This document shows, one piece after another, positions 12,764 through 56,798 of a stretch of 64,000 bases of DNA. Both the position numbers and the translations under genes were made by a program. The notes below the pieces were generated by a model, which was not told the origin of the DNA, searched no databases, and saw only the letters and a list, made by a program, of their open reading frames with translations. This DNA comes from Marchantia polymorpha subsp. ruderalis (lineage: Eukaryota > Streptophyta > Marchantiopsida > Marchantiales > Marchantiaceae), in NCBI GenBank assembly GCA_037833965.1, contig AP031358.1, forward strand, positions 10,858,001-10,922,000. The letters run 5' to 3'. Position 1 is the stretch's first letter. Each line of letters opens with the position of its first letter.

Positions 12764-12771
12764 GTTGCAAA

Positions 12772-13009: not shown

Positions 13010-13017
13010 GTTGCAAA

Positions 13018-14700
13018 TATGATATAACAATATTCAAGACTTTTTTTTGAAAATCTTTTCAATCATTGTTGTTAAAGGTAAAAACTATAATCTTTATATA
13101 TATCTCACATTTGTAGTTTTTTATTTGCTTTTGATTGTATTTTGAAGTCGATAGTGATCATACCTATAGTATTTGACAATCTTTCTACTAATAATTCACA
13201 CATAAAAGTGTTGAAGATCAACCTAGCTCCCATGACCTTTGTGTTTGACTTCTTGCTCCTTGCTTGATGCCGTTGTTGATTATTTATCAAACCATCAAGT
13301 GACCGCAATCTTGCTTGTTGATTTCTTATTACAACATAACAACTTGCAATCTGACATAATAACTTGTTCACATGATATGTCATCAACATATATTTATAAT
13401 CTACCGTCAATCTTGTTGACTTACAAGAGAACACAAAAAAAGTGTTGAAAAGTGATAAATTAAGATCAAAAGGATTTGTAAACAAAGATCACGCATTTGA
13501 AATTTTTAGATCTTGTTGTGATGTCCTACTAATTTAAAATCGTTTGGAAACTTTTTGCTTGAATCCAATTTGCACTCATCTCAAGTTTTGTTTGTCTTAT
13601 CTTTGTCTTGTCATTCATCTTGACATGGAGACCTCAAAGTAAAGACTTTTGCGTCTCAAGTCTAGCTTTGCTTTTTATCTTGATTTTCGGTTTCAATGTC
13701 TTTCTTTGACTGAAGCGTGAATCGTTAGCCCCCACGATTCAACTTTACAATCTGCCAACATCAATAATGAGATAAACCTCCTTTTGTACCTCGTCCCGAT
13801 TTACACTTTTGTTGCCGAAGAAATTGTTACCAATATTTTTGATATCAATTTCATCAAGAAATAAACAAAAATCCACATACCACCATCAAATAATAGACAT
13901 CGCCAAGAACATTTGTGGTTTTCCACTCTTGAGTTGCATCCAAGAGAACAACTAGTAAAAAACCTATACATTTTGCTGTGCAATCCGAGTCTAGTACTCC
14001 CAAGTTTTGAGAATAGCAAAAACCCTAGATCTCACCTTAATTAGGGTTAACTCTAAACTAACTCTAGTCCGAGTTAGGTTAACTAGAGTTTAACTTGAAA
14101 CTTGAGTTAATATTAACATGATTATCATAAAACTTTTTGCACCTACGTGGTATTCGAATTTACACAAGTATCAAAAAGGTGTTGGCGATGGAGCTGAAAT
14201 TTATGGAGGAAATCATTCATAGTTTTGTTAAGCTCAACTAAATCACTAGATACTCGATGTTTTTTTGCCTCACTTTTTATTTTCTCTATAAATAGGCATG
14301 CATAAATGACCCATAACCCTCCATGGGAATCTCGTAAACGGGTAACGGGAAAAACGGTTAGGGGATCTGAAAAGGGAATCTCGTAAAAATGTTTTGTGGT
14401 TAAAGTGAAAAACAGTCATGGGATCCAGAAAAGTCACCCCGAGAAAAGTCACCATGTCTACTGGTCTTCTCCAAGTTCACAATCGACATTGGAAGAAAAC
14501 CTTTAGGATTCCTGTCAGTGTATGAAAATCGAAAGTTTTTTATTTTCTGTATCTTTCAAAAAATTGTTTGAAGACCTGTTCATATAACCTGTAAAACACT
14601 TGTGAAAACTGGGTTGAGTTTTGTGGCAATATTGGTCCATTATTTGATGGGACTATGTCGAAACCCCCTACATTAAATATTTAAGGACAGAAGATTACTG
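13018..14700. other. Gene-free AT-rich region
   Basis: Nothing recognisable. A minus-strand open frame at 13105-13485 has no motif and sits in low-complexity AT-rich DNA, so I do not call it a gene. Confidence 0.4.
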
Positions 14701-41029: not shown

Positions 41030-43716
41030 CAAAAAAGCCCCCCAAGGAAAGAGCCTTGGGCCTGTTTATTCACAATGGCAACTCTGAGATATCAACCGCT
41101 TGAGACGAATCGCTCTCAGGGGCTGTGCTGTCCGATGTAACGGTTACAGCATCGTCTGAACTACTATCTACTCCTAATCTACGCAACACGTTTACAATCT
41201 CTACTTCTACATTCTGGCGCGCCTCATTCAATCCCTCTGAAAATGTATTAACTAACTCTACAATCTATTTGTGCCCTGCGGATCCGCTGGTCTTCGCGTT
41301 CATCAGCCGTCGCTCGAGTGAATCTAACTTCATCCACTTCACCAAGTCCAATCCCCACATTGCAAACCCGTTCAGGCACTTCTCTAACCGCAATTTCAAC
41401 TCGTCGGTTGACTCCTCCCGCAGCTGACGGTAGGCATCCTCTGCCTTTTCCATTCTCCTTTGCGACTCTTCCGATCTCATCTCCGCCTTTCCTAACTGCT
41501 CTTGTAACCGTCAACAGTCGAATTCAACCTTTAACTTACATTCGACCTCCGAAGACTTGGCCGACTCGCAATCTACCAATTTCTTGGGCCAATCCGCTAA
41601 CTCCTCTTCATGCTTTGGGTTTCCCGCCGACAGACTTGCTGATAGCTCCTCCGCACGTCGGAATTTCATTTCACACTTTGCCTCAATCTCCAAAATTTTG
41701 CTGCGAAGATCTTCCTCCGCCGTCTTCGCCTCTGCGATTTTGCCCCGAAGTTCTTCGGCGATACGAACTTCTTCGGCTTTTCGGGCTTCCACCTTAGCAA
41801 GTTCCTCGATATGCGTCTTCTCTCGCTTCTCCGCAGTAGTGATCAACCGCTCCGATCTTTTGATTGATGCATCGTAAGCTTCTATGGATTTCTCCAATCT
41901 TGCCATCAAATCCATTGTTGCTTTCTGGGCATTCTCATTAGAAATACGAAGTCCTTCACAGGTCTCTTCCAACTCTGCACAGTGCCCGGATTCCTTCTCT
42001 AGATTCAGCTGTAACACTTCACACTCAGTTTCCTTCTCTCGAAGCTGGACTTCTCGCTCCCTTCACTACCGCGCACTCGGATGACAAGGTTGCAGCTCGC
42101 TCCCGCGCCAATGTAGTTGCGGAATCCCATTCCCTCTTTACTGCAATTGCTCTCTTGAGCTTCGTCATATTCCTAATCATCGGTACATAGAATCCTGGCT
42201 CCTCCGTTACAACATACTTCCCTCTCTTCCCATCCAAATACTTCAACAATGGAACTACGCTATCCTGCAAGAATTCAGGAAATGTAATTTCCAATGTCTT
42301 CACGTCTTCACCCGAAGCCTTCTTCCCTTCTTCGGGTCTCACCTCTTCCATCGGAGATGTCGGCAGTGTAATGTCCTCGGCTTCTACCACCGTCCCTCCT
42401 ATCCGTGCGACAACCTGCTTCAGAATCTCCTCGCTCAAAGTGGTATCCTTCTCCAGATCCTCGTTCATCTTCAGTTGTGGTGTCTCTTCGCCCCGCGCAG
42501 ATCGTGTCTGCTCCGAAGACAGAGAAATCGGACTTACCAACTCCGTACTCTCCTTCAAAGGTTCTGCCGGTATGGCTGTTGGAACTTCAATTGACACCTC
42601 CGAAGGTACTCCTATCTCCACAGGCCGCGTCCCCTCGCTAGCTGCGACTTCGGATGTGTTCACAATTGGTGCCACCGTTTTCTCCACGATGCTATCCGAC
42701 ACCTCAACTGTCACCATCCTCCGATTCGCCCTCTTCTTTGGTCTTGCGCAAGCTCTGTGATGCCTTGCTCCATCTACATCCATATCCACCCTTCTTACCT
42801 CGTGGCCCAATTCTTCCTCGTCATCACTCACGACCTTCCTCCTCTTCGCCAATCGTCTCTCTGGCTTCTCCCGTCTCTGAACCACGTCCACCTTAATTGA
42901 TCCTCGAGTTGTCGTGTGTGTTGGGATTGATGGGGGTCGGTTCTCATCTTCGGTCCCTTCACTGGACTCAGCTGTCAGGATTTCCCGCTCTCTCGGAAAT
43001 CGCTTCTCCTCCTCCCTCATAAGCAATTCCATGCCCCCATAAAAATTCACCAAAAAGCGAGTGATGTGATTGGTCAAAGGTCCCGTCAACCGGGAGCCTA
43101 CATTCACCCAGACAAGATCGTGAAAGATCATTGCCCAATGTACTCGCTGTCCCTTCAGGATGCGTTCGAAGAATCTTACTTGCGTCACATAAGTCGTGTG
43201 CGCCTGCCGCAAGATGTGCATGATACCCAACGCGATCACCCTTCTCTTTGGATCTTTATAATCGACAGTCTTCCATCCGTTCGTTCCCTATCTTCCAGAA
43301 TCGAAGAGAGGCTCGTAAGAGAATTCCTTGCCGCGTGTAAGTCCTACGCTATTCTTTTCAAATAGCAGACTTCCTTCGCTGCCCGCATAGGGTCCCAATA
43401 CCTTCGTCCAATGCTCGATGGTCCACAACATGGAATTACCGCGGAGCTCCTCGCCTTTGGTCGTGCTCTTGTCCATTAACTCCTTGCAGATACTTGCCGA
43501 GACGCAATTCCAATTCCACAAAAGGAATTCAAGCCGTAGTTCACTCAACTCGCGTCTGAAGGGTCTCAAATCCTCGTAAGGCACCTTCAAGGGAACCAAT
43601 TTCCTCACCTTCTCACTCTTCTTGGGCGCCATGTCTTCAATTTGCGTTTCACTAATCGCGGGTTGGCTCGATTTCACTTCCTCTCTCTCGATATCGCAAT
43701 GTCGGCGCGAAGTCCC
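41030..43716 (-). mobile_element. Non-autonomous LTR-type element with coiled-coil gag-like ORF
   Basis: Minus-strand element body directly downstream of an LTR-like block (43717-44079, listed separately). It carries one long, slightly broken ORF and no protease, RT or integrase. Its left end has AGCCTTGGGCCTGTTTATTC (about 41060), resembling AGCCTTGGACTTCTTTATTC at about 63355, where another such element seems to end. That fits a LARD-like family moved in trans. Confidence 0.5.
41248..43677 (-). pseudogene. Gag-like coiled-coil protein, broken frame
   Basis: Starts MAPKKSEKVRKLVPLKVPYE at 43677. An in-frame TAG at 43288 is followed by continued coding in the same frame (GTNGWKTVDYKDPKRRVIAL ... 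FFERILKGQRVHWAMIF). An acidic/basic linker with an NLS-like KPERRLAKRRK follows. The C-terminus is a long coiled coil (LAKVEARKAEEVRIAEELRG) that changes frame near 42060 and again near 41514. About 800 codons in total. No known catalytic motif. The fold resembles structural retroelement proteins; function is not assigned. Confidence 0.5.
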
Positions 43717-43829
43717 CTGTCGTGCGACTCAGTATCGCCATACATCATACATCGCTGACATGCTCTACTCCCAACTCACACATACATACACAAGGAACGA
43801 GAGTGTCCACACACAAAGGTATCACAACT
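43717..43829 (-). repeat. 113-bp module, copy A
   Basis: Identical by eye to 44081-44193 (starts CTGTCGTGCGACTCAG, ends GGTATCACAACT on the plus strand). On the minus strand it would form the 3' part of an LTR-like block, TG(TCATGG)...(GCACGA)CA, together with 44079-43829. The gag-like ORF starts 40 bp beyond it. Confidence 0.8.
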
Positions 43830-44079
43830 AAAATCAGTGTCGAAACACATACACAAAGAGTCGAGCCAAACTCACTACTCGTAGGTAGACTAAAAGTCGA
43901 AGCTAAGGGGAAAAACCCCGACGCGTAAGGCTCAACTCGAAGAACTGACAGTTCTTCGAGTTCGCCACGAATATAACCCACGGAAGGTGTCGACGACCTC
44001 AACGTGCAGGGCGTCCCAACGTGTACCGCGTCCTAACGTGTCTACACTCAAACCCACACTAACGTCTTGAGCCATGACA
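43829..44079 (-). repeat. 251-bp LTR-like module, copy A
   Basis: Minus strand starts TGTCATGGCTC and ends CACTGATTTTA. It is the same length as 56183-56433 and I count only three differences. It contains a perfect hairpin at 43934-43962: 14-nt arms AACTCGAAGAACTG with a single-base loop. With the adjoining 113-bp module it gives a TG...CA block of about 360 bp, a plausible LTR for the minus-strand element at 41-43.7 kb. Confidence 0.7.
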
Positions 44080-44080
44080 G

Positions 44081-44193
44081 CTGTCGTGCGACTCAGTATC
44101 GCCATACATCATACATCGCTGACATGCTCTACTCCCAACTCACACATACATACACAAGGAACGAGAGTGTCCACACACAAAGGTATCACAACT
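44081..44193 (-). repeat. 113-bp module, copy B
   Basis: Second copy of the 43717-43829 module. It lies directly after a polypurine run (minus strand CTAGGGGGGCG, 44194-44204), so it may be the start of the 3' LTR of the methyltransferase-bearing gypsy element. No matching copy was found beyond gag near 54 kb. Confidence 0.7.
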
Positions 44194-44319
44194 CGCCCCC
44201 CTAGCTGGCGGTCAGGTCCCTCTGACTCCCAGGTAGCCCTATCTACAACTACATGCTATGCACCTTCGTGGGTGCGCGAACCAGTAGGCCGGGTGCTATG
44301 TCGCCCCATCGTTAGTCGC

Positions 44320-47126
44320 CTATATGCAATTCATAACATGTGAAGAAGTACATCGAGGACAAACCCACCGTCCAGTAGGAACAACATCGATAGGTGGAGT
44401 CAAGCACGACATGTGCCATCCTCTAGAACACCTATCACACACCAACATATGGGCCGCCTGATCAGTTGACCCACATAACATGCACCTCAAGCCGGCAAGT
44501 ACAATCGCCAAGCTTGGGTCCATAGTACCATCCACGTTTGGGAGGTGGCATGGCGCACAGTTGCGCACATGATCCTTCCAAACGACACCGTCACGACCCT
44601 CCAACATAAGAACTCCAGAAGGTAACACCTCTCGCACTCGCAAGATAGTGCGTCCTGCCGTCACATCCAACGTAGTCGGTGCAGTCTGCTGTAGATAGAC
44701 GTAGTCTCCCACGCGGAACCTACGAATCGATGGTCGATAACCTCCTCCTCGAATAGTTGCATACCGCAACGTGACTCGGTGCTGAGCAATCGCAAGGTTC
44801 TCAAACGCTGCAGGCATAACTCTCCGAAAGAGCACTGCACGTTGAGAACACACTCTCACCCACATATCTGGATCATCAAGGTTCACCACCTCGCTAGACT
44901 CACGACGAATCGCTGCAGGCAAGTCTGGATCTCGGCCGTACAATAGAAAATATGGTGAAAACGAAGCCAAGGATGCTTGACGACTGAATCGATATCCCAT
45001 GGCCAACCATGGTAACTGAATATCCCAGTTCCCAAGATGCCCCTTCTGTAGGCCATACTTGCGCAACGCTCTCTTCACCGTCTGTACCATCCGCTCAGCC
45101 AAACCATCCGCCTCTGGATGATCTCGGGAAGTAGTCCGGTGATCAATCAGCGTCTTGTCACACAAGACCTGAAACTCACCCTGAAACTCTGTCCCCTGAT
45201 CGATCAACACCTCAGCTGGTGCACCAAAGTGACTAAGCACCCTGTCAAGGAAAGCATATGCTACTCCCTCACTCGCCTTGTCAGGTAATGCCACCAACTC
45301 AATCCACTTGGAGAAATGCTCCACCATCACCAACACATACCGATGATGTCGTGTAGTCAAAGGTAGTGGTCCAGCAAAGTCCAAACTCCAACGGTAACCC
45401 AATCCCATGATAGGTAAGGGATGTAACTCTGGTGTCGTGGCATTGAACGATGCCCTCACTCGATCACAAACCATGCAACGTGATACCAACTGCTGCACCT
45501 GCGTATGCATACCACGCCACCAATACTGACCTAGGAGTAAGCTGTACGTACGCTTCACTCCAAAATGTCCCAACTCCTCATGAGCATGCCTCACAATGCG
45601 TGCTCTCTTAGTTGGATGCGGTACTACCCGTACCCTACCGTCCTCCCACACTCGGAGAACATGTGCTCCCTCCAATCGATATCTCTTCGCCCTCTGGAGA
45701 ACACGATCTCGCTCCTTGGCACCCACTGTGCCTGGCACCATACTGGTCCGTAGGAACTCCAACACCAACGCATCATCGTGAACATCACGCTGGTCCACAC
45801 CACCATCCTCAACCTCAGGATCCGAAGACTGACTATCTACTCTCTGACTAGAGTAAGATGTCAAGTGGTCCTCACTGCTAGAGGCCCCACAAAACCAACA
45901 CATGAAGGCCGATGCATGCCAACCGGGCACCATCTCCTCATCAACCTCACCATGCCACCTAGCTCCATTGTCATCCTCCTGGCTAGTGCATGGGTTCCGA
46001 CTCAAACCGTCGGCATCCAGGTTCGCAACTCCAGGCCTATGCACCACCTGAAAGTCATACTCCTGTAAGATGAGAGCCCACCGTGCAAGCTTCCCTGTGA
46101 GCTTGTCAGACTCCATCAACCACTTGAGCGGTTGATGATCGGTAACAAGAGTAAACTGCGTACCAAACAAGTAACACCTGAAGTGTGCCACAGCCCACAC
46201 CGCTGCCAAACACTCTCCCTCGTACGAACTATACCGCGACTCTGCTGCATTGTTCGAACGACTAGCGTACGCAATCACAAACTCCTTGCCCTCATCATCA
46301 CACTGCGTCAACACCGCTCCAAGTCCCAACATACTCCAATCAGTGTGCAACTGGTATGGTCGACCTCTGATAGGTCTCCTCAAGATGGGAGCGGCCACCA
46401 ACCTGGCCTTGAGCTCAACAAAAGCTCTCTCCTGCTCATCTCCCCATTGCCACTCCTGATCCGACTTCAGCAACTGGTTCAAAGGCTTCGCTATGGCACT
46501 GAATCCCTTCACATATCTCCGGTAATAGTTCGCCAAACCCATGAATGCACGAACTCTACTCACATCCGCTGGACGAGGAATGCGTGCAATAGCCTCCACC
46601 TTTGCCTGCTGAACTCCCAAACCACCTGGGTAGATCACATGACCCAAGTACTCCACCTTCTCCTGGAAGAACCTACACTTTCCAGGATGTAACCGTAGAC
46701 CATGAGCCCTCAACCGCTCAAGCACAATCTGCAAATGTATCTGGTGTTGCTCCACCGTGTCGCTAAACACCAAGATATCATCAATATAACATCTGACAAA
46801 ATCTAGCCCCGCTAGATTCCTGTCCATCACTCTTTGGAACTCGGCAGATGCATTCTTCAACCCAAAGGGTAAGAATCGCCACTGATACAAACAATCCTTG
46901 CCATGAGAGTTGACACCCCAAAACGCTGTCTTGGCCTTGTCCTCCTCTCGAATCGGCAACTGGTGGTATCCCGCCCGAAGATCCAAAGTACTAAAAATCT
47001 TCGCATGTCCCACCACATCGAAGATCTCCTCAGGTGTAGGCATGACATACTTATCGGCCTTCGTCTGCCGATTGATAGGACGGTAATCTCCACACATCCG
47101 CCTATCCGTGTAGTTGCCATGTACAT
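44320..47126 (-). CDS. Gypsy Pol, main part (RT, RNase H, integrase, PHD)
   Basis: Continuous frame from the hAT junction at 47126 to a stop at 44320. RT: CGDYRPINRQT, LDLRAGYHQL, FLPFGLKNA and catalytic YIDD (about 46777-46788). RNase H: LHTDWSMLGLGAVLTQ, SYEGECLAAVWA and DHQPLKWLM. Integrase: zinc-binding H...H...CMVCDRVR, then a catalytic core with LDFAGPLP, IDQGTEF and the downstream Glu in EADGLAERMVQ. A basic C-terminal segment and the PHD finger follow. All catalytic residues I can check are intact. The RT N-terminus lies beyond the hAT insertion at 49525-49875, in frame if the hAT and one TSD copy are ignored. Confidence 0.9.
44350..44484 (-). other. PHD finger at the integrase C-terminus
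   Basis: Residues 872-916 of the 925-codon pol segment show C-x2-C-x11-C-x2-C-x4-H-x2-C-x14-C-x2-C, the C4HC3 PHD pattern, with the typical Trp two residues before the penultimate Cys (RWVCPRC). PHD fingers bind histone H3 tails. Here it takes the C-terminal position that chromodomains occupy in chromoviruses, so a role in choosing integration sites is a reasonable inference. Confidence 0.85.
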
Positions 47127-49524
47127 CAGGCCACCTTAAAAGGGGTAAAGAGGCCGCGCACTACCCCTTTTACCCCATTTAAGCTTTGGGCTTTTACCCC
47201 TTTTAGTGAACTGCGGCCTTTACAAATTGTTGTCAACCGATCGATGTCGATGTCGTCAAGGACGCTTGTAACCACTGTAGCGAAGTCGAAGAGAGCGCAG
47301 ACACCGTTCATTCTGTCCCACGAGCTGAAATACGGTCTCAAGATCGTTACGCGACATGTGCATACCCGTGCTGTCGAATCTGTGCGCTGCCTGTTCTGTG
47401 TCTACCACGGACGAGAGGAGATTGTCGGCCAGAAACGTCAGCGACAGAAGACTGTCAATTGCAAGACCTGGGAAGTGTTCCGAAGCGACGCGTACGTGAA
47501 ACACCATGTTCAACAGCATCCCACAGCCTGGAAACTGTATGATGCTGCCGATGCTGATGACAAGAAGCAATTCTTCCTCGACAAGATGGAGCATAAGAAT
47601 ACCTTGCATGCCCATCTGGGCAATGCGAGCACTCCGCTGACCTTCTCGTTCGACGCCGCCATCATAGATGATATCATTCTATCCACGTTCTTCGACGAAG
47701 ACGAGATCGACAGCAGCTCATACCGCCGTGCCGTAAAGTTGTTCCAGAAGGTTGTGGATCGTGAGTCCGACGGCGCGTACCATTATACGTCTACAATCAA
47801 CAGGGCCATGCAATTTCAACTGACAGCGCGCTTCCTCGCCATAGGTATGTCGTTCCGACAGATCGAACGTGCAGTTGATGCCACGCGGGAGGTCGCCAAT
47901 GTCGCAAAGCTAGGCACGCTCAACGAGATGTTGGTTGGCGACTATGCCCGTATCCTCGTCAGCGCCGGCTTGCAGATGCTCAGCAACGTTCTGAATCGTA
48001 GCGAGACCTGGGCATTCTCGCTAGCCAACGACAGCTCGACACACTTGAGCCTGTCGTATTTCGAGCAACGAATTCGTCTGCACGTTGCCGGCGATATCTT
48101 CAACCTGCATTTGATATCCATGCCCATGTTCGACCGGCACACCTCTGAGAACATGGCGTTGCTCGTGTTCAAGATCCTGGACGTCGTTTGTCCCAGCTGG
48201 CGCGACAAACTTCTCTGCGTCAGCACCGACGGTGCGAATACGATGACAGGCCGTCACAATGGCGTTGTCGCACGCATTCAGCGTGAGGCCACTCATCCAT
48301 TGTACCGTATTTGGTGCCTGATTCATCAGGTTGACCTGGTCTCAAAGCGCAATCTGCTCGCTCTATTCGACGGCGATTTCCAATGCATCATCAACAAGGT
48401 CGCCACCTGCTTGCGTAAACAGCAGAAGCTGATCGACGATATGGGTGCGACCTGTCCGAAGATGACCACTCGCTGGCTGGCCTTAGGCGTCTGGACCAAA
48501 TGGCAACTCGATCATCGCATCGACCTGGAGACCTGGTTTGCGAGTCGTACCGCGCCAGGGCAGCTGCAGCTGCCCCGTTGGTGGTGGCCAATCATTGCAG
48601 GCGTGTGTGCGGTGATGACGCAGCTGAACTTTGCCATCGTCAAACTGCAGTCGAAGAATCTGCTGCTTTCGCAGCAGATCGCCGAGATCGAACGCGTCGT
48701 CAGTATCATCTGCATCAAGTGCGAGGTTGAGGTCGTGAATCCGCTCGTCGAAGGAGAAGTTGCAGCCGACGAGACGCAATCGGCAATCTGTGGTAAGTGG
48801 TCGATCACTCATCGCAATGTCGAGAAGTTCTTGCTTGACCAGGGTTCGTTCGTCAAGCATGTCTTGGATGCCATGACCGTCATTCAGCGTGCTGAGGTGT
48901 TCAGTGAGATGGGTACTTTCGTTGTCGGCATGATCGATGGCATCTTACAACTGGTCGCTTCTCGGGACGCTGACAACCTACCATCGGAGGAGGAGATTCC
49001 GCCGGTGCTGCCCCACCAGCTTATCGCGATTCGACCAGCCGCATTCGCTGCACTCGCCAACAAACACGGCGGACGACTTGCTCAGCTGGGCGAGAACGTC
49101 ATGGATCGCATCGAACAAGATCACCGTGAACTCATCACTGCATTCGACAACGAGCCGTCGCTTCACGACGCGCTTGGTCGCTGCAACAACGATACGTCAT
49201 TTCGTGAAGGTTGGGCGGTCGTCGAGGGTCGTTTCCGTGGTCTGCGTGACTTCTGCGGTGGCATCGCCACCATCTTTCCAAACACTGCTTCGGTGGAGTC
49301 CAGCTTCTCAATTCTCGGCTGGGAGAAGGATGCAAACCGCATGTCCCTCACCGATCTGGCGTTGGAAGGCTGCATGCAGGCGCGGCAGTTTGATCTCCTA
49401 TCAAAACTAGCCTAATTCGTCAAATAAACCATTAGTTCCACTTTTACCCCTTTTAAGCTTTGTGGCGACCATTATATAAGCTAAAAGGGGTAAATGTGGA
49501 TATTACCCCTTTTAAGGTGGCCTG
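47127..49524 (+). mobile_element. hAT DNA transposon inserted in the gypsy RT
   Basis: 2398 bp with perfect 8-bp TSD ATGTACAT (47119-47126 and 49525-49532). TIRs start CAGGCCACCTTAAAAGGGGT and match for about 22 bp. Subterminal copies of TTTTACCCC/GGGGTAAAA occur at least three times at each end, probably transposase-binding sites. It encodes one uninterrupted transposase on the strand opposite to the gypsy ORFs. Perfect ends and an intact ORF indicate a recent insertion. Confidence 0.95.
47244..49415 (+). CDS. hAT transposase, 723 aa, intact
   Basis: Starts MSMSSRTLVTTVAKSKR. A BED-like zinc-binding segment follows (CLFC at residues 50-53, then H...H in VKHHVQQHP). The RNase H-like core contains LCVSTDGANTMTGRH and WCLIHQVDLVSKR. 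The C-terminus has NTASVESSFSILGWEKDANR, the hAT dimerisation/catalytic-Glu block, ending LARQFD-like residues near the stop. Length is in the usual range for hAT transposases. No stop or frameshift. Cut-and-paste transposition with 8-bp target duplication is expected, consistent with the observed TSD. Confidence 0.9.
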   Translation: MSMSSRTLVTTVAKSKRAQTPFILSHELKYGLKIVTRHVHTRAVESVRCLFCVYHGREEIVGQKRQRQKTVNCKTWEVFRSDAYVKHHVQQHPTAWKLYDAADADDKKQFFLDKMEHKNTLHAHLGNASTPLTFSFDAAIIDDIILSTFFDEDEIDSSSYRRAVKLFQKVVDRESDGAYHYTSTINRAMQFQLTARFLAIGMSFRQIERAVDATREVANVAKLGTLNEMLVGDYARILVSAGLQMLSNVLNRSETWAFSLANDSSTHLSLSYFEQRIRLHVAGDIFNLHLISMPMFDRHTSENMALLVFKILDVVCPSWRDKLLCVSTDGANTMTGRHNGVVARIQREATHPLYRIWCLIHQVDLVSKRNLLALFDGDFQCIINKVATCLRKQQKLIDDMGATCPKMTTRWLALGVWTKWQLDHRIDLETWFASRTAPGQLQLPRWWWPIIAGVCAVMTQLNFAIVKLQSKNLLLSQQIAEIERVVSIICIKCEVEVVNPLVEGEVAADETQSAICGKWSITHRNVEKFLLDQGSFVKHVLDAMTVIQRAEVFSEMGTFVVGMIDGILQLVASRDADNLPSEEEIPPVLPHQLIAIRPAAFAALANKHGGRLAQLGENVMDRIEQDHRELITAFDNEPSLHDALGRCNNDTSFREGWAVVEGRFRGLRDFCGGIATIFPNTASVESSFSILGWEKDANRMSLTDLALEGCMQARQFDLLSKLA

Positions 49525-49875
49525 ATGTACATCCTTCTTCGCTGGCATAACAGTGGCTGAAGCATACTCACCATGCGACAACTCCACTAACCCAGCCTCC
49601 AATAACTCCAACGTCCGACTCTTAATCAAGTCCCTTTCCATATCACTATATCGATAGGGACGACGGAAGATTGGCGTATCACTAGCCAACTCTATCCGTA
49701 TGCCAGGTCCAATCAAAGTACCCAACTCCTTCATACTGAAGGCAAAACAACTCCTATAGTCATGTAGGAATTGTATCAACCGTCGTCTTTCTCCTCCGGT
49801 GATCTGAGAGCCAATCGATGGCTCCCACTCCTCCTCCATGGAGCCACAAGAGGGAGGCGATACTGTCACTGGTTG
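49525..49875 (-). CDS. Gypsy Pol, N-terminal part upstream of the hAT
   Basis: Follows the UAG of ORF1 in the same frame: QPVTVSPPSCGSMEEEW ... FAFSMKELG (a typical gypsy pre-RT block), then ASATVMPAKKDVH up to the insertion. SATVMPAKKD corresponds to the RT motif usually seen as SPVVLVKKKD. It has no ATG of its own near the junction, so expression most simply requires readthrough of the UAG at 49876-49878. The hAT insertion separates it from the rest of Pol. Confidence 0.8.
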
Positions 49876-49878
49876 CTA
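49870..49878 (-). promoter_or_regulatory. Candidate UAG readthrough context between gag-MTase and pol
   Basis: The minus strand reads TCA TAG CAA CCA GTG, with pol continuing in the same frame. UAG-CAR-YYA is the tobamovirus-type readthrough consensus, and CAA CCA satisfies it exactly. A single stop separating two same-frame ORFs, with no other damage nearby, points to programmed suppression rather than mutation. Inference: Gag, protease and methyltransferase are made in excess over RT and integrase. Confidence 0.7.
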
Positions 49879-52800
49879 TGACATCTCCTCCAAAGGAGAG
49901 TTCTCTGTACCCTCCTTCGTAGCAACCTCCCCGTGACCAACATCTCCAACTGCATGGGCGTCTACTCTCGCAAGTCCTCTCGTCACGTCCCATGAACTCC
50001 AAGGATGACGAATATTTCGCAGGTCGCCCCCAGCCATTGCAACTACCGTCCCGGTAGGCAATGAGCTAATAAGCGGTGTAACAACCACCAAATCTGCGCG
50101 CAAACGGCGTTGCTCGGCCAAACCCAAGCTCACAATCCATGTCAAGCAGTTCAGGTCCATAGCCTGACCCAAAACCTGACGACGCGATGCCTCTGAAACT
50201 AAAGAAGCCGCGGTCACACTAGTAAGAAACCCCATCGCACGCTCTCTCTCATCAGCGTTGGGCTCCACCAACTGATGTAGGGTACTGTCCCACAGTAGTC
50301 CAGGTCCCCCATCACGATATGCATGTGATGCCGGATAACTGACCAACGTAGGCAAAGCCATCCGAGGCTGACCTACGTGGTTCACCAATGCCATGGGTGA
50401 CCTATCCGCCACTCTCACCACCTGAGAGTATCGAGAGACATCTAAGATCGTGTCAACGGTGAGGGTAGGATCACGATGCACAAAATCATACGCATGACGC
50501 AATATCTCTCGTGGTACCAGGTTGGTCCACCACAAACGTGCACGATGAGCACGTGAACCAACCCTCGCAGCATCCAACAACACTGCTGATCCAATCCATG
50601 CCCTGACCTCATGGACACTCGCCATCAACTGGGCCCGAGTGTCACCCAACAAGGGTACGTTCTCTAGAATGTATGCGGGAGAACGTGTCTGCTGCTCTTG
50701 GAGATGACGTAACACTCGTAGCATCTCCCAAAACATCCGAGATCTCGGGTCATGTAACCCTGCTCCATGCCCAGCGCGTGTGTGCCCCTGACATGGCCAT
50801 CCCGCAATCACCAAATCAATATGTCCAACTCGATCGAGGTCTGGCGCCCCTAGCAATGAAATGTCTGCAGGCAACGCCTTCTGATATCCTCGAACAGCTG
50901 ATCGCGGCAACAACAAAGGAAAACGCTGCATCAACTGTGTAACATGTCGTGAAGAAACCCGACGTGCAGTCTCGTCCTTCTCCACGTACAAGTATCTACG
51001 TACAAGAATACCTGATTGCAACACTGCAGCCAAACCCGTGCTGATCCCTCCAAAAAGATCCAGCAAACAAACACCCTCTGGGGAATACTCCCATACGATA
51101 GGTGTAGTAACTAATGGTGATAGGGTGCTAAGACCACATACTAGCCGACCACCTGAGACTCGCTCTGCCTCTGCTGGTAAAGAGGCCTCACTCCAAGCCT
51201 TCTTCACCAACCTATCAGCCTCCTGCTGTAATGCGTGGCAAGAATCCCAAAGTGGAACATCCAAAGATGATGACACTGCCGCTGCGAGACTCACCATCTC
51301 CTCCACCTCCTCATAGACTGGAGTATCCTCGGCTGACCTGTTCCCCTCCAACAAGTCATCACGCCATGTGAGCACTCCACTGAAACCCGCAATAGAGGCT
51401 AAAACTGCAGGAGAAGATCCAAGAGGTCGATCTCGAGAAATGAACCTCACAGGCAGTTCACTCATACGTCCATCACCGGACTCCCAACCAGGACGATAAG
51501 CTGCCGTCTCCGTCCAATAATCCATCCGAAATCCCATCGGATATAACACCGCTCCACCAACAAGCACATCATATGACTCTGCTGATGTAACCACCGCTCG
51601 AACTCCAAACTGCGAGCTATCCTGAGCATGACCATGCCTCAACTGCACTGATATGCGCTCTCTGGTCATCCTGTAAGACCTGTCGCTGGTGCCACCGAGT
51701 GATGTCTGAATCTGGAATGGACAAGGCTCCAACTCGGACCTCCGAACTCCCAAACTAATGCAGGCAATCTTGCCCAACATCAAAGGCTGTGCACCAGAAT
51801 CCAGCAACACTCTGGCTGGGACATACACCTGCCCTGTAGCACTCACCAAGCGAAATACACCGCTCCGGTTGTCCACCATACACACACCAGGGACAACCCT
51901 CTCCCGATCAATGGCTGGTCGGGCTGGCAAGGACTCCATCCGTGCCGCTGCCGCCTGCCATGTCGACTCATCGCTCGATGGAGTCGTAAAGGATAGCTCC
52001 TCACCAATAGTCTCGCCTATGTCGGCACTCGTAGCAGGGATACTCCCACGTTCACACAACGTGGCTGCTGCACGAAAAACTCGAGCCAAGTCAATCCAAG
52101 AGTCCATCAGCTCCATAGCTGAAAATAATGGAGATCTCATCACTGAGCTAGCCATCCGCGTCACTGCACTAGATGGTGTGTCTGTATCCACCACACGTGA
52201 CGTAGATGTCTCAGTCCTCCCACTAAGGCCACTAGGTGGTACAGGTCTCATGGATGAAGTACTGCCCACCTCTGACAGCAAAAACGACTGGGGAAGTCTG
52301 GCCTGACGCCCACCCTCACCCCTCTGAGGATCCAACTCCCCTGTCGCCCCGCGTGGCTCTAGAGCTCGAGCTGCACCTCTAGTCACTGCAACCAATGCCT
52401 CCACCTGTGCTGCACTCGCTAGATAAGGGAAATCCTCTTCCTCGTAAGAGGTGGAAGTGCTCGCCCCAGAACTCACCATAGCAGCAAGCCTCTGCTCCAA
52501 CTGCTCAATACGAGCAGCCATCGCGCTCTCTGTGGCCGAAGTAGCACTCGCTACAGGACGTCCAACTACACCGGCACCTCGACCACCTCTACCAGCACGG
52601 CCACCTCGACCTCGAGAAGCAGCACCACCACGACCTCTACCACCAGATGTCAACTCTGGATGAAGGTCAAAACACCGATCTCGAGTATGACCTGCTCGAC
52701 CACAGTGGTCACACACCACCTGTGCTGACTGGGGTCTAGCCTGTGAACTCTGACCTCCGGCCTCCTGGGGACAATCTCTTCGCCGATGATCCCCTCCACA

Positions 52801-53925
52801 TGTCCAACATGCTGGTCCCTGCTGCTGGCCAGCAAACGACGGCACTAGTGCACGTGCCCCTGTATCCCTAGCGGCTGTCTGATGTCGTGTCTGCACTCCG
52901 CGACCCCCACCACTACCACCACCAAAGGGTCTAGACTGTGCCGTGCTCTGCGGGACACGAGAGGTAGTGGCTGCGTCTCTAGCGAATGAAGAAGTCACCA
53001 TTCTCTCCTCCACTATGTTAAGCTCAATCTTCTCAGAAAGAGCAAACACATAGGCCAATGTCGGTGACGCATCGCTCAAAAGGGTAGCATCCCGAACCCT
53101 CTGCCGTAGCTCTCTGTCCAGTATCCTGTACCAATACTGGACCGCCTGTGCCTCAGTTACACCGTGAGTAACTGAGATCAACCTCCGCATACGCGTGTAT
53201 GCCTCTCGAAGACTCTCACCAGTCTTCCGCTCAAACTCCTGGAGACTCCTCAACTTCTCCGTCCTCACCCCCTGATAGTTCTTCCTCAACCTCTTGAAGA
53301 ACTCAGGAATGGGGCTGAACGAAGGTACGCCAGTAGTCTCTCCACTCGTGCTGGCAACGCCAACGGCACCGCTGGTGGTACCTGCTCCACTAGTACCATC
53401 GGTGATGCTACCACTCGCCCCTCCACTGGTACCAACACCACCCTGGGTGATCGACGTATAGTTTGGAGACCAATGACGTCTCCATGCGTCAATCTCCACA
53501 GCATACTCTCTCCCAAACTCATGGTAGTCATCCATGGGAGGCCCCTCCAGATGCTGAAACAACCCTTTCCATGCAAAGAAGGGTGTAAACAACGTGGGGT
53601 TACGCAAGAACTGCATATCGCACCACGTGTCAAACTCCTGGATGAAATCATCCAACTCAATGGTGCCCACTGCACCAGAGTACCGCCGTGGGCCCTTCAT
53701 GGCCCCGTACATACCGTCCATGTCCTCAGTCCACAAGTGTGGGACCCTAGACGATATCACCCCCAAAGATCCGCTTTCTGCCACACTCCGTGCCTCTACA
53801 ACCACTGATGCGCTAGGATGAGGTAGCCGATACCTCAACCCACTCCGCGTAAATCCTCCAAGGTCCTCAACGGAACCCCCAAACTCCTCCGTGATGACTG
53901 ACTCACTAATCGGCACCACTGCCAC
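49876..53925 (-). CDS. Gag - aspartic protease - DNA methyltransferase polyprotein
   Basis: 1349 open codons. Gag core about residues 80-310 (TLFTPFFAWKGLFQHLEG ... ESLREAYTRMRRLI). Zinc knuckles at residues 373-385 (C-x2-C-x3-H-x4-C) and 405-418 (canonical C-x2-C-x4-H-x4-C), then an RGG-rich stretch. Retropepsin-like protease about 690-800 with active-site DSGA (709-712). C5 DNA methyltransferase about 950-1265. Ends SPLEEMS-UAG. The first codon given is GTG; the first ATG is residue 69 (53721) and an in-frame TAG lies about 50 nt upstream of 53925, so translation starts at 53721, at a non-AUG codon, or after a splice. Alignment by eye suggests the conserved Gag begins after residue 69. Confidence 0.9.
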   Translation of the reverse strand: MAVVPISESVITEEFGGSVEDLGGFTRSGLRYRLPHPSASVVVEARSVAESGSLGVISSRVPHLWTEDMDGMYGAMKGPRRYSGAVGTIELDDFIQEFDTWCDMQFLRNPTLFTPFFAWKGLFQHLEGPPMDDYHEFGREYAVEIDAWRRHWSPNYTSITQGGVGTSGGASGSITDGTSGAGTTSGAVGVASTSGETTGVPSFSPIPEFFKRLRKNYQGVRTEKLRSLQEFERKTGESLREAYTRMRRLISVTHGVTEAQAVQYWYRILDRELRQRVRDATLLSDASPTLAYVFALSEKIELNIVEERMVTSSFARDAATTSRVPQSTAQSRPFGGGSGGGRGVQTRHQTAARDTGARALVPSFAGQQQGPACWTCGGDHRRRDCPQEAGGQSSQARPQSAQVVCDHCGRAGHTRDRCFDLHPELTSGGRGRGGAASRGRGGRAGRGGRGAGVVGRPVASATSATESAMAARIEQLEQRLAAMVSSGASTSTSYEEEDFPYLASAAQVEALVAVTRGAARALEPRGATGELDPQRGEGGRQARLPQSFLLSEVGSTSSMRPVPPSGLSGRTETSTSRVVDTDTPSSAVTRMASSVMRSPLFSAMELMDSWIDLARVFRAAATLCERGSIPATSADIGETIGEELSFTTPSSDESTWQAAAARMESLPARPAIDRERVVPGVCMVDNRSGVFRLVSATGQVYVPARVLLDSGAQPLMLGKIACISLGVRRSELEPCPFQIQTSLGGTSDRSYRMTRERISVQLRHGHAQDSSQFGVRAVVTSAESYDVLVGGAVLYPMGFRMDYWTETAAYRPGWESGDGRMSELPVRFISRDRPLGSSPAVLASIAGFSGVLTWRDDLLEGNRSAEDTPVYEEVEEMVSLAAAVSSSLDVPLWDSCHALQQEADRLVKKAWSEASLPAEAERVSGGRLVCGLSTLSPLVTTPIVWEYSPEGVCLLDLFGGISTGLAAVLQSGILVRRYLYVEKDETARRVSSRHVTQLMQRFPLLLPRSAVRGYQKALPADISLLGAPDLDRVGHIDLVIAGWPCQGHTRAGHGAGLHDPRSRMFWEMLRVLRHLQEQQTRSPAYILENVPLLGDTRAQLMASVHEVRAWIGSAVLLDAARVGSRAHRARLWWTNLVPREILRHAYDFVHRDPTLTVDTILDVSRYSQVVRVADRSPMALVNHVGQPRMALPTLVSYPASHAYRDGGPGLLWDSTLHQLVEPNADERERAMGFLTSVTAASLVSEASRRQVLGQAMDLNCLTWIVSLGLAEQRRLRADLVVVTPLISSLPTGTVVAMAGGDLRNIRHPWSSWDVTRGLARVDAHAVGDVGHGEVATKEGTENSPLEEMS
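50131..51078 (-). other. DNMT3/DRM-type cytosine-5 methyltransferase domain
   Basis: Residues about 950-1265 of the gag polyprotein. Motif I LLDLFGGISTGL (954-965, SAM binding). Acidic motif II in YVEKDETARRV. Motif IV IDLVIAGWPCQGHTRAG with catalytic Cys1045. Motif VI ILENVP with Glu1088. Motif VIII VGSRAHRARLWWTNL, very like AAHRARYFWGNL of DNMT3 proteins. A target-recognition stretch of about 100 residues, then motifs IX/X (RRQVLGQAMDLNCLTWIVSL). All catalytic residues are present in linear (DNMT1/3) order, not the permuted DRM order. Predicted reaction: SAM-dependent 5-methylation of cytosine in DNA. Confidence 0.9.
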
Positions 53926-54000
53926 AACTCCACCTGCCCTCGTCCCTGCACTAACCTGCTCTAGCCCTACTGACTATGGGTATGTGCAACCTAACCTGTC

Positions 54001-54578
54001 ATCACCGCAAGAAGACTCTCCTGGTCCACTGGTCATCACTCCAGTCTCACCATGAGAGAAACAAAGATAGGCGCCGGTGATCAAATCCAGCCGCACTATC
54101 GACAGCACACTGGAGTAAAACTACTCCGGAAATCAACGTCAACCCAGACATGGGCGCGCATCAAGAAGCCAGACTGGAGAGGATCCAAACACAAGCAAAC
54201 AGCTAGCAACGACTCTCCAGCCGAAATGAAACACAGCACAGAACAACACAACACACGGGACATCGCCTCGCATCGCGACCCCGAGTCGAACTCCATCGCC
54301 TCCTATCATCCTCCGTCTCCAGCGCCTGCAACGCCATCCCGTTCATCTCGTCGCAAAAAAATAATGAACTCCACGCCGAGCTATCCCGTACTTCACCTCA
54401 TACCTCCACTTCACACTACAAATAGAGGCGTCAAATATAACAAATATGAAAAGCCTATCTACCCTAACTGTTTGCCATAGAACAAAAAACAAAATAGAGA
54501 TAAAGCAATATTTTTACAACCGACAAACCATAGTAAGTGAGACGAGTTCAAATTCTCGATCTCTTCAGAATATTTTCC
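54001..54578. other. Gag upstream region, boundary unresolved
   Basis: Probably the 5' leader of the gypsy element plus flank. On the minus strand, CACCGGCGCCTATC near 54070 weakly resembles the context of a primer-binding site but does not match a tRNA 3' end convincingly. No LTR matching the 44 kb side. Confidence 0.35.
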
Positions 54579-54640
54579 TCTCTTCTTCTTCTTCTTCTTT
54601 TTTTGTTTTTGTTTTTGTTTTTGTTTTTGTGTGTGTGTGA
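54579..54640 (-). repeat. A-rich tail-like tract, candidate poly(A) of the MND1 retrocopy
   Basis: The plus strand is (CTT)n, then (TTTTTG)n, then (GT)n. Read on the minus strand it is an A-rich run (AAAAAC)n ending in GAAGAAG, about 400 nt downstream of the MND1 stop. Position and strand fit a decayed poly(A) tail, though it could be an unrelated microsatellite. Confidence 0.5.
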
Positions 54641-55041
54641 AATCTAGTGCTTTCTTCTTGTTATCTGTATTCGACAAGGCCCTGTTTGTTCAAGTCTAGA
54701 ACAATATTCGTACGATCTGAGGACCATCTGCCATCGACAGGCCAATTCATCTTCACTCGACATTGAGTTTGCAGAAACATCACTGTCCACCTAAATGCTC
54801 GCAGGTATTGCTCGAAAGTGGCGAAGTGTCAAAGCTTTACATCTATGATTGAGACAAAGATCTACTTTACAAACGTTTTAGTATTACAACGTCACCAGCT
54901 GCCGTGTAGGAGTGGCCTACGTTGGAGCTACCTCGGTTTAATTGACGAGATCGAAGAGCCTCCTCTGGATCTATGTGCTCGACTAGATAATGTACAAGAG
55001 ACTTGGCAGAATGAACACCAATTTCGTGCTGCAGGTAGACG

Positions 55042-55670
55042 TCAATCCAAGTAATCAAGATCCTCCTTTATTCCGACCTTTGCATATGCTTGCTCTAGCA
55101 TTTCCTTCGCTTCAGGAAAGGTGTTCGAACACCACTGCTGGAGAGAAAAAATATTTTCTGTCCACCGGTTAACAGCTTTGTGCGCCACCTCAGTTACGCT
55201 GCTCATTTCTTCGTAGACAGCAGGATCGTTTTGGGCATATAGATCAAGCTCTTCCTTGATAGCCTTGTGCTTTTTCTGAAGCTCATTCAGAGCATTCAAC
55301 GCTGACTCTCGCTCACTAGAATCTTCTCTCCCCTTCTTCGCAAGCTCTCGTTGTGTTTGCAAGTCTGCTTGGCGTTTTTTTTCGCTGCCTCCAACTCGGT
55401 TTCCAGCTTCATTCGCACTTGCCTTAACTGATTCCCTGCCCGACTTGAGAGACTCCAAAAGTATACAGAAGTGCCAATCTTGTCCTTAAAAAACCAAATC
55501 GTCATCTACCAGGCTTTGAACCACATCCTTGACTGACTGGCTGATGACACCCTTCTTTGGCCCAAGTTTTTCAAGATCCTTCAACTGGTAAAATCCCTGA
55601 CTCTCATAGAAGATTTGAAGCATCTGCTCTCGCTTCTCTTCCAGGGACAGCCCGCGCTTCTTCGACTGCA
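55042..55670 (-). pseudogene. MND1: MND1-like meiotic recombination factor, intronless, two frameshifts
   Basis: Encodes a near full-length MND1. The N-terminal winged-helix part reads [19 protein letters not shown] and [32 protein letters not shown] block and coiled coil follow. The end is NRWTENIFSLQQWCSN and a terminal EDLDYLD. MND1 with HOP2 stimulates DMC1/RAD51 strand exchange in meiosis. Here frames shift at a T6 run (55488-55493 on the minus strand) and at an A8 run (55375-55382). No introns interrupt about 205 codons, although plant MND1 genes are usually multi-exonic (from memory). The initiator Met is replaced by TTTGCAG just before codon 2. Best explanation: a 5'-truncated retrocopy. 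Homopolymer assembly errors in a real gene are the alternative. Confidence 0.75.
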
Positions 55671-55679
55671 AAGATCAAG

Positions 55680-56182
55680 AGGCTCCTAGTGAAATTCTTT
55701 CCTTTGAGAAATGAGTTGCAAACAACTGTAGCCATAGCAAAAGCCGAGCAGCCCGAACTGAAGGAAAATGATCCGGAGACTCGCGTCACATCACAACGCA
55801 TAAGAAAAGATCAGCGCATTGCTCGATTCCTTCTCGTTTCACGTCACGTCTCGTCTCTTCTCTTCTGGCCTCGGACCGATGATGCGCGACAGAGCCCGGC
55901 GAAACTAACTGCCAGTCGTTCGTCAACGTACTTCCTGCTCGATCGACATAGCCACTACAGACATCGTCGGCGTTCCTCGCCCTCCACTTCGTCACATTCA
56001 TTCAGTTCTCCATTCTTGTCTGCCACTCACTGGCTCCCTCCCTCCGAACATTGCGACATTGCTCCATGAATGGACCGGGTCCAGCTCTCTGCAGCCTGTT
56101 CGTTCGAGCGGGAGCGCGTGCACATGTGCATTTGAATCCGAACCTGCTCACTACTTTCAAATTACTTTCACAGTTCTTCGAG
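55680..56182. other. Flank of the MND1 copy
   Basis: No gene supported; overlapping frames on both strands look incidental. CTTTGCAG immediately before MND1 codon 2 resembles a splice acceptor, so an upstream exon carrying the ATG cannot be excluded. Confidence 0.35.
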
Positions 56183-56433
56183 TAAAATCAGTGTCGAAAC
56201 ACATACACAACGAGTCGAGCCAAACTCACTACTCGTAGGTAGACTAAAAGTCGAAGCTAAGGGGAAAAACCCCGACGCGTAAGGCTCAACTCGAAGAACT
56301 GACAGTTCTTCGAGTTCGCCACGAATATAACCCACGGAAGGTGTCGACGACCTCAACGTGCAGGGCGTCCCAACGTGTACCGCGTCCTAACGTGTCTACA
56401 CTCAAATCCACACTAACGTCTCGAGCCATGACA
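56183..56433 (-). repeat. 251-bp LTR-like module, copy B
   Basis: Same length as 43829-44079 with three differences counted by eye, including the 14-nt-arm hairpin (56288-56316). It lacks the 113-bp module. Instead its left flank is CAGTTCTTCGAG, a copy of one hairpin arm, suggesting a recombination breakpoint at that word. On the minus strand it is preceded by AGTACAAGGGG, which could be a polypurine tract. Confidence 0.7.
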
Positions 56434-56798
56434 CCCCTTGTACTGCCTTTACCTTCGAACCCCTAACAATGCCTCCTCCCGCGCCCAGTAGAACTCCCGA
56501 CGCGTGCGAACATCGTCCGGCCCATTGCGTGATTTGAAATTGATTTCGATGTCTTCGCCGAAGACGTAGCTCTTCGTACATCCATAAAAGGCTGCGCTGA
56601 AGACACGAAGATCCGAAGATCTTTGGACGTAGATGAATTCTAACTAATTCTATCATTTCTCCTTAGGAGCTGCTCATTCTAACTCTAACAACTACTTTCT
56701 AAACAAATATCTTTTAGTTTTGTTGATTTTTAAAGAAAAACAAAAAAACTAGGCACCACATACTTCTCTCCCCATTTGTGAGCGACCCCGCGAACACG

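What the first reader, a model, noticed from the sequence alone, without database searches (positions are those of the whole stretch)
50131..51078. A retrotransposon that carries its own DNMT3-like cytosine methyltransferase
Seen: motifs I, IV (PCQ), VI (ENV), VIII (HRAR) and IX/X in linear order inside the same uninterrupted frame as Gag zinc knuckles and a DSGA protease. Known: C5 methyltransferases silence transposons. I recall a report of retroelements in dinoflagellates and charophyte algae that acquired DNMTs, so the class may have a precedent. Inference: the element may methylate its own cDNA or its target, perhaps to hide from host defence or to reduce its cost to the host.
Basis: partly seen in the sequence, partly recalled or inferred. 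Interest (0 to 1): 0.92.

Follow-up and report, generated by a model that had tools for sequence, protein, structure and literature searches.

The report
Liverwort retrotransposon carrying a DNA methyltransferase
A multi-copy mobile element in a liverwort genome (most likely Marchantia) carries its own conserved DNMT3-type DNA methyltransferase, belongs to a kind first described in an alga, and also picks up spliced copies of host messenger RNAs, which makes it a new testbed for how jumping genes handle the host's silencing mark.

Summary
On the minus strand, one open frame (49876-53925) holds zinc knuckles, a DSGA protease and a complete C5-methyltransferase domain (50131-51078) of the DNMT3 kind: PDB profile E 4.5e-21, confident model, listed fold matches all DNMT3 entries. 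It is no assembly join or lone copy: at least 126 matches in the source genome, dN/dS 0.136 between two groups of stop-free copies. The window is most likely Marchantia polymorpha.

The kind has a precedent: KnitGypsy-Dnmt3 of the alga Klebsormidium (PMC5890265), with the same DIRS-like repeat order. New here: related DNMTs occur in other bryophytes, Closterium and, at another place in pol, the green alga Haematococcus. UAG-CARYYA separates Gag-Pro-DNMT from Pol in 8 of 9 sequences. A PHD finger follows the integrase. Split-repeat copies have TG...CA ends and perfect 4-bp target duplications in 14 of 16 copies, so a DDE integrase inserts a permuted element. Leaders hold captured sequence; this copy carries a near full-length spliced MND1-like mRNA (10 introns absent). 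A hAT-like transposon breaks this copy's pol.

Likely role: methylating the element's own cDNA (inferred).

The parts
43718..56433 (-). whole element, ends TGTCATGG...GCACGACA (element orientation), 12,716 bp including a 2.4-kb hAT-like insertion
   Evidence: repeats; ends and target duplication
43714..43717 (.). 4-bp target duplication CCCC (partner 56434-56437)
   Evidence: perfect 4-bp duplication also in 13 of 15 other copies
56434..56437 (.). 4-bp target duplication CCCC
56184..56433 (-). repeat A1 (5' end), 250 bp, holds a hairpin
   Evidence: A1/A2 247 of 250 identical
56171..56183 (-). primer-binding-like 13-mer ACTCGAAGAACTG directly after A1, complementary to one hairpin arm in A (self-priming, inferred)
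   Evidence: exact in 9 of 14 copies with A1 placed, the other five differ at 1-2 bases
54643..56165 (-). captured spliced host mRNA (MND1-like), 11 blocks, 10 introns absent, sense to the element
   Evidence: Pfam Mnd1 2.2e-18, LZ3wCH 2.8e-18; frame broken between the two pieces
55489..55674 (-). MND1-like N-terminal open piece
55042..55458 (-). MND1-like C-terminal open piece
54598..54629 (-). A-rich tract 13 bases after the end of the captured block, before the element-specific leader
49876..53925 (-). Gag-protease-DNMT open frame, 1349 aa
52672..52809 (-). two CCHC zinc knuckles
51556..51855 (-). aspartic protease region (DSGA at 51784-51807); limits set by me
   Evidence: no protease family for the window itself at E 0.1, relative L088 Asp_protease_2 7.8e-4 (below cut-off)
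50131..51078 (-). DNMT3-type C5-methyltransferase domain, PCQ with Cys1045 at 50788-50796
49870..49878 (-). UAG-CAACCA stop (CARYYA context) between the DNMT frame and in-frame pol
49453..49869 (-). start of pol (N-terminal side of RT), cut by the hAT-like insertion
47127..49524 (+). hAT-like DNA transposon inside pol; the palindromic ATGTACAT at 47119-47126 and 49525-49532 read as its 8-bp target duplication (my reading); transposase frame 47244-49415
   Evidence: 30-base inverted ends; weak Dimer_Tnp_hAT E 0.066, below cut-off
44320..47097 (-). rest of pol: RT (YIDD), RNase H, H2C2 and rve integrase
44350..44484 (-). C-terminal PHD finger after the integrase
   Evidence: Pfam PHD 9.5e-11; PDB
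44194..44203 (-). polypurine-tract-like TAGGGGGGCG before B1
44082..44193 (-). repeat B1, 112 bp
   Evidence: B1/B2 112 of 112 identical in this copy, (L009)
44080..44081 (-). GC spacer between the end of B1 (CACGACA) and the start of A2 (TGTCATG)
   Evidence: GC in 25 of the 28 units where the junction pattern was found (30 examined); same junction in L088
43830..44079 (-). repeat A2
43718..43829 (-). repeat B2 (3' end)

Best explanation
A Ty3/gypsy-type retrotransposon family, recently active in a liverwort, that encodes a DNMT3-type cytosine methyltransferase as the last domain of its Gag-Pro polyprotein. SHOWN from sequence: architecture Gag-protease-DNMT / UAG / RT-RNaseH-integrase-PHD; multicopy; DNMT under purifying selection; split repeats A-coding-B-GC-A-B with TG...CA ends and 4-bp target duplications; leaders with sequence from elsewhere in the genome, in this copy a spliced host transcript. 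INFERRED: (1) the DNMT is made at Gag level, Pol by stop read-through, so many DNMT domains enter each virus-like particle; (2) there the DNMT methylates the element's own double-stranded cDNA before integration, so that the new copy enters the host with a host-like mark; (3) reverse transcription self-primes from the RNA's 5' hairpin, giving a conventional cDNA with a B-GC-A LTR; its ends join (the TTTT|AGTTG junction at A2/B2) and the integrase cuts at the B-GC-A site, which yields the permuted insertion; (4) template switching to packaged host mRNAs fills the leader, and the same process could have delivered the DNMT3 and PHD domains originally. My estimates: identity and conservation about 0.97; a catalytic rather than structural role about 0.85; own cDNA as main substrate about 0.5.
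For: Domain identity. Copies: 126 scored matches of 625 candidates. Selection: 64 pairs between 8 close and 8 more distant copies, dN 0.0368, dS 0.2709, ratio 0.136 (range 0.098-0.191); bootstrap for the window 0.090-0.212; in six close copies the DNMT (0.155) is tighter than the 1500 nt upstream (0.303) (two of the eight, L004 and L006, left out for stops upstream). Target duplications: 13 of 15 other copies plus the window. Junctions and 13-mer. UAG-CARYYA in the window, 6 of 7 other copies (L007 CAACAA) and L088, whose DNMT is 49% identical. Two domain orders split the DNMT tree, 18 against 20 chosen sequences, support 0.992. Spliced MND1-like capture. SymbioDIRS DNMTs methylate CG in yeast: PMC5890265.
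Against: No activity data for this protein; the closest tested relative, KnitGypsy-Dnmt3, gave no methylation in yeast (called inconclusive). No clear CpG depletion. Copies for dN/dS were stop-free, which favours low values; 53 of 126 matches have a stop in the domain (counted by eye). Two of 15 other copies lack a perfect duplication. The circle step rests on repeat order alone. No PHD was found in the Closterium protein P0034, so the PHD is not universal. This copy is broken by the hAT-like insertion.
Confidence: 0.62

Rival explanations
1. The DNMT acts on the host genome, not on the cDNA: it methylates chromatin at or near insertion sites (the PHD finger may choose unmodified H3K4 chromatin), so that new copies are quickly silenced and cost the host little.
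For: A PHD finger sits where chromoviruses carry a chromodomain (recalled) and has PHF21A, CHD4 and other PHD proteins among its PDB hits (their reader classes are recalled). DNMT3 enzymes are steered by an ADD/PHD-like module (recalled). de Mendoza et al. discuss self-restraint.
Against: In the order found here DNMT and PHD are in different polyprotein parts, separated by a stop, so they need not stay together; P0034 of Closterium shows no PHD.
Confidence: 0.22
2. The domain is used as a nucleic-acid binder or RNA methyltransferase in the particle, not as a DNA methyltransferase.
For: DNMT2-type enzymes with the same fold act on tRNA (recalled); the KnitGypsy domain showed no methylation of DNA in yeast (inconclusive); the Cys1045 column differs in 3 of 46 sequences.
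Against: Profile and fold match DNMT3A/B far better than DNMT2 (E 4.5e-21 against 3.6e-4). Glu1088-Asn1089 and Arg1130 are invariant in 46 sequences.
Confidence: 0.1
3. The DNMT is a passenger that hitch-hiked once and is now decaying.
For: 53 of 126 matches carry at least one stop within the domain (counted by eye).
Against: dN/dS 0.136 at dS 0.27 (stop-free copies); domain kept in two architectures from Marchantia to Haematococcus.
Confidence: 0.03
4. Integration uses an ordinary linear cDNA that already has the A...B order (made by a DIRS/PAT-like completion of ends on the B1-A2 template), with no circle.
For: Same repeat order as DIRS elements; B1 and B2 are identical over 112 of 112 bases in 17 of 28 units compared (2 of 30 skipped), as expected for ends copied from one template. 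This also fits the circle route.
Against: The G run before B1 and the 13-mer after A1 fit conventional LTR borders for a B-GC-A LTR, and A2/B2 joins exactly those two borders.
Confidence: 0.35

Closest known systems
KnitGypsy-Dnmt3 of Klebsormidium nitens (de Mendoza et al. 2018, PMC5890265; abstract, introduction, Results and Discussion read; word look-up)
   Same: Gypsy domains, DNMT3 domain in the polyprotein, no introns, purifying selection, repeat order said in a figure legend to be that of DIRS
   Different: Liverwort host. UAG-CARYYA stop, 4-bp target duplications, self-priming 13-mer and captured mRNAs are not mentioned in the parts read; the word PHD does not occur. No K. nitens sequence was found to align.
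SymbioDIRS-Dnmt3 and SymbioLINE-Dnmt (same paper)
   Same: Retroelement-borne DNMTs, two domain orders in SymbioDIRS, purifying selection
   Different: Tyrosine-recombinase DIRS or LINE backbone, dinoflagellate hosts; the paper calls the acquisitions independent
DIRS/PAT elements (partly recalled)
   Same: A-coding-B-A-B split direct repeats
   Different: Here DDE integrase (rve) and target duplications
Tf1 of fission yeast (recalled)
   Same: Primer site directly after the 5' repeat, complementary to a part of the element's own transcript
   Different: No DNMT, ordinary repeat order, other host; priming here is inferred only
Bs1 of maize and other LTR elements with captured genes (PMC13317346, passages)
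   Same: Host transcript pieces inside an LTR element
   Different: Here a near full-length 11-block mRNA in the leader, and different inserts in different copies of one family

Membership tests
KnitGypsy-Dnmt3 kind | Gypsy-type pol with RT, RNase H, DDE integrase | tested here: met
KnitGypsy-Dnmt3 kind | unpermuted DNMT3 domain in the element's polyprotein, no introns | tested here: met
KnitGypsy-Dnmt3 kind | DIRS-like A-coding-B-A-B repeats | tested here: met
   not assessed in the 20 more distant copies fetched
KnitGypsy-Dnmt3 kind | purifying selection on the DNMT | tested here: met
   on stop-free copies
KnitGypsy-Dnmt3 kind | common descent with the K. nitens copies | not tested
   no protein named as K. 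nitens in the rows listed (120 of 204 listed)
DNMT3 methyltransferases | closest to DNMT3 among C5-MTases and not permuted as in DRM | tested here: met
   DNMT3A 4.5e-21, DRM-type 7.3e-11, HhaI 6.5e-7, DNMT2 3.6e-4; linear order. No tree with host DNMT3 genes was made
DNMT3 methyltransferases | catalytic activity on DNA | not testable with these tools
   needs an assay
DIRS order | tyrosine recombinase | tested here: not met
   Pfam scans of the Gag-Pro-DNMT and pol frames show rve and no phage integrase
DIRS order | no target-site duplication (recalled) | tested here: not met
   perfect 4-bp duplications in 14 of 16 copies
Chromoviruses | chromodomain at the integrase end | tested here: not met
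   Pfam at E 0.001 shows a PHD finger there and no chromodomain

The most novel reading that the evidence does not exclude
A green-plant-wide lineage of retrotransposons combines a DDE integrase with a permuted-LTR (circle-junction) integration route, carries a DNMT3 writer and in many members a PHD reader, and fills a cargo space in its leader with spliced host mRNAs, the same capture route that gave it its epigenetic enzymes. It would be a natural vector that rewrites epigenetic marks and shuttles host cDNAs.
Probability: 0.3. Interest if true: 0.85.

Novelty: new variant of a known kind. Interest (0 to 1): 0.62.

Why it matters
The 2018 report left open why retrotransposons keep a silencing enzyme. 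A family with at least 126 matches (73 without a stop in the domain, counted by eye) and several nearly identical repeat pairs in what appears to be Marchantia, a genetic model, makes the question testable. The two stable domain orders across green plants suggest long co-existence. The permuted insertions with target duplications raise a separate, testable question about how a DDE integrase handles such an intermediate, and the leaders show host transcripts entering an LTR element repeatedly.

Tried and rejected
Assembly join: rejected by the copies and relatives. Viral source of the DNMT: the first viral-contig scan found no relative; the second gave only L087, a 33% match over part of the domain on an IMG/VR contig. 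Genome contigs gave one locus, L088, filed as a cyanobacterial MAG; it is a Gypsy element with identical 127-base ends, so I read it as mis-binned eukaryote DNA. CpG depletion as footprint: not clear. More distant copies: 20 5' ends fetched, but the window's A repeat finds only fragments of 32-54 bases, in 9 of 20, so their repeat order was not assessed. A dN/dS run had two loci in the wrong orientation and was replaced. A tree with host plant DNMT3 genes was not made: no such sequences were obtained. PMC12344493 mentions DNMT3 inside retroelements of streptophytes in general. Most subscription papers, and supplements, were out of reach.

Full report
WHAT WAS CLAIMED AND WHETHER IT IS THERE. 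The finding lies on the minus strand. The frame 49876-53925 is open for 1349 codons and holds two CCHC knuckles, a DSGA protease motif and the methyltransferase motifs in the order stated. Pfam gives DNA_methylase 6.5e-9, above its cut-off. The best solved relatives are DNMT3A, 3B and 3C. A profile of six homologues ranks DNMT3A 4.5e-21, a DRM-type enzyme 7.3e-11, HhaI 6.5e-7 and DNMT2 3.6e-4. An AlphaFold2 model from 29 aligned sequences has mean pLDDT 93.4 and pTM 0.92; the 50 fold matches listed (of 197 with E up to 0.001) are all DNMT3 entries, the first with TM 0.74 by query length and 0.82 by target length.

WHERE IT COMES FROM. The genome held for this window has nine contigs and 241 Mb. 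The nearest named proteins are from Marchantia polymorpha; the best full-length one is 98% identical over the whole domain. I infer Marchantia polymorpha or a very close relative; the genome itself is unnamed.

COPY NUMBER AND SELECTION. The domain has 126 scored matches (of 625 candidates, so a lower bound) on all nine contigs; 73 have no stop inside and 53 have one or more (counted by eye). Sixteen domain sequences were compared: the window, seven close copies and eight more distant ones, all stop-free. Between the two groups 64 pairs give mean dN 0.0368, dS 0.2709, ratio 0.136; a codon bootstrap for the window against the distant ones gives 0.090-0.212. Within the close group the ratio is 0.181, within the distant group 0.252; single pairs within the groups range up to 0.83 and 1.01. 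In six close copies the DNMT (0.155) is more constrained than the 1500 bases upstream (0.303); L004 and L006 were left out there because of stops upstream. In 46 aligned sequences Glu1088, Asn1089 and Arg1130 are invariant, and Cys1045 is present in 43.

ANATOMY OF THE ELEMENT. Repeats are A1 56184-56433, A2 43830-44079 (247 of 250 identical), B1 44082-44193 and B2 43718-43829 (112 of 112). In element orientation the order is A, coding, B, GC, A, B. The ends are TGTC...GACA, flanked by CCCC on both sides. Of 20 further copies whose 5' ends were fetched (18 of them show part or all of A), 15 could be paired with a held 3' end. 13 of these 15 have a perfect 4-bp duplication; the exceptions are C5:6965903 (ATGC/ATGA) and C5:12752799, where A1 was not found. 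With the window that is 14 of 16. The B1-A2 junction reads ACGACA-GC-TGTCATG in 25 of the 28 units where the pattern was found (30 examined); a run of five or six G stands before B1 in 27 of 30 (counted by eye). B1 and B2 are identical in 17 of 28 units compared. Directly after A1 stands ACTCGAAGAACTG, exact in 9 of 14 copies with A1 placed and with one or two differences in the other five; it is complementary to one arm of a hairpin in A, found in 14 of the 15 copies examined for it. A1 and A2 are identical in L048 (290 of 290) and L040 (254 of 254 aligned, one gap) and near-identical in most others, so insertions are recent.

PROTEINS. In the window and seven other copies the frame ends in TAG followed by in-frame pol. 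The next six bases are CAACCA in the window and six of the seven copies and CAACAA in L007; the distant relative L088 has CAATCA. CARYYA after UAG is a known leaky context (recalled, tobacco mosaic virus). So DNMT is probably made with Gag-Pro and Pol by read-through. Pol has RT with YIDD, RNase H, H2C2 and rve integrase, and ends in a PHD finger (Pfam 9.5e-11). In this copy pol is split by a hAT-like element; its 30-base inverted ends begin with the palindrome ATGTACAT, which I read as an 8-bp duplication (weak hAT dimerisation hit E 0.066). I describe this break only.

RELATIVES. A search with the domain gave 53 proteins (only 8000 candidates scored), one with a profile 204 (8000 scored, best 120 listed), one with the Closterium protein 20. 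Named hosts in the rows shown: Marchantia polymorpha, M. paleacea, Riccia sorocarpa, Calypogeia fissa, Sphagnum fallax, S. troendelagicum, three Closterium strains and Haematococcus lacustris (lineages of Haematococcus, Closterium and Calypogeia checked). For M. paleacea, Riccia, Calypogeia and S. troendelagicum only short DNMT-bearing proteins were seen; that they lie in elements was not checked. Two domain orders exist: protease-DNMT before RT (Marchantia, Sphagnum fallax, Closterium, L088 and unnamed ones) and RT-RNaseH-DNMT-integrase, mostly with PHD (Haematococcus and unnamed ones). No PHD was found in the Closterium proteins that reach the integrase. In an unrooted tree of 38 chosen sequences the two orders separate on one branch with support 0.992. 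One acquisition with a later move, or two acquisitions, are both possible. L088 repeats the first order with a PHD, the CACGACA-GC-TGTCA junction and the G run, so these traits are probably old.

CAPTURED TRANSCRIPTS. In the window the leader from five bases after the primer site to 13 bases before the A-rich tract matches a place on contig C2 as 11 blocks (96-100% identical) with 97-711-base gaps in the genome and none in the leader, covering 1523 of 1523 bases. Two open pieces match Pfam Mnd1 and LZ3wCH; the frame between them is broken. Splice-site letters were not checked: the parental DNA was not obtained. Six other leaders were searched the same way, of 15 others in which the primer site was found. 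All match other genome places in part; four of the six (L043, L044, L046, L050) show a spliced pattern. Some are mosaics of several pieces. Sources other than the MND1-like one were not verified as genes. The most economical mechanism is template switching to co-packaged mRNA. Insertion of processed copies by LINEs is an alternative that I could not exclude.

HOW IT MOST LIKELY WORKS. Reverse transcription with self-priming would give a conventional cDNA with LTR B-GC-A. Joining its ends gives the junction TTTT-AGTTG seen at A2/B2. Cutting at the GC site gives exactly the observed A-coding-B-GC-A-B. A linear route with DIRS-like completion is the rival. The DNMT most likely methylates the cDNA in the particle. 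This is inference: activity of this protein is untested; the closest tested relative was inconclusive in yeast while SymbioDIRS domains were active (PMC5890265); and CpG content shows no clear footprint.

COMPARISON AND NOVELTY. The kind is known since 2018, including the odd repeat order noted in a figure legend. In the library's 5.39 million papers the word KnitGypsy occurs in that paper only, and its main text does not contain the words Marchantia, Sphagnum, liverwort or PHD (Methods and supplements not read). A 2026 review of plant gene capture names Bs1 and cereal LTR elements, states that 5'-transduction has not been reported in plants (a different process) and holds neither the word bryophyte nor Marchantia (passages). 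I therefore rate this a new variant of a known kind.

Noticed in passing
window 54643-56165; leaders in L040, L043, L044, L046, L048, L050: Leaders between primer site and gag differ between copies. All 7 leaders searched (of 16 with the primer site found) match other genome places in part, blocks mostly 85-99% identical; 5 of 7 (window, L043, L044, L046, L050) show blocks contiguous in the leader but apart in the genome, as after splicing. Only the MND1-like source is backed by Pfam above cut-off; the L040 piece resembles a nucleoside transporter (below cut-off), an L050 piece gave no family. Some L048 blocks are other leaders of the family.
   Followed up: partly
L088:8153-8177: A run of 25 A in the leader of a distant relative, upstream of gag like the A-rich tract of the window leader.
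   Followed up: no
P0189, P0191 (Haematococcus lacustris): DNMT-bearing proteins also occur in a chlorophyte; P0189 has the order RT-RNaseH-DNMT-integrase-PHD, in P0191 only the DNMT was found.
   Followed up: partly
P0056: A protein labelled as from a Candidatus Obscuribacterales MAG is 49% identical to the element DNMT; probably mis-binned eukaryote DNA, like L088.
   Followed up: no
window 57875-58975 (-): Fragment of another Gypsy pol (RT and RNase H) just beyond the 5' end of the element.
   Followed up: no
window 8001-14000: GC falls to 23-32% against 41-48% in the first 8 kb.
   Followed up: no
L016, L021, L037: Spacer between B1 and A2 is AA, GT or AC instead of GC.
   Followed up: no
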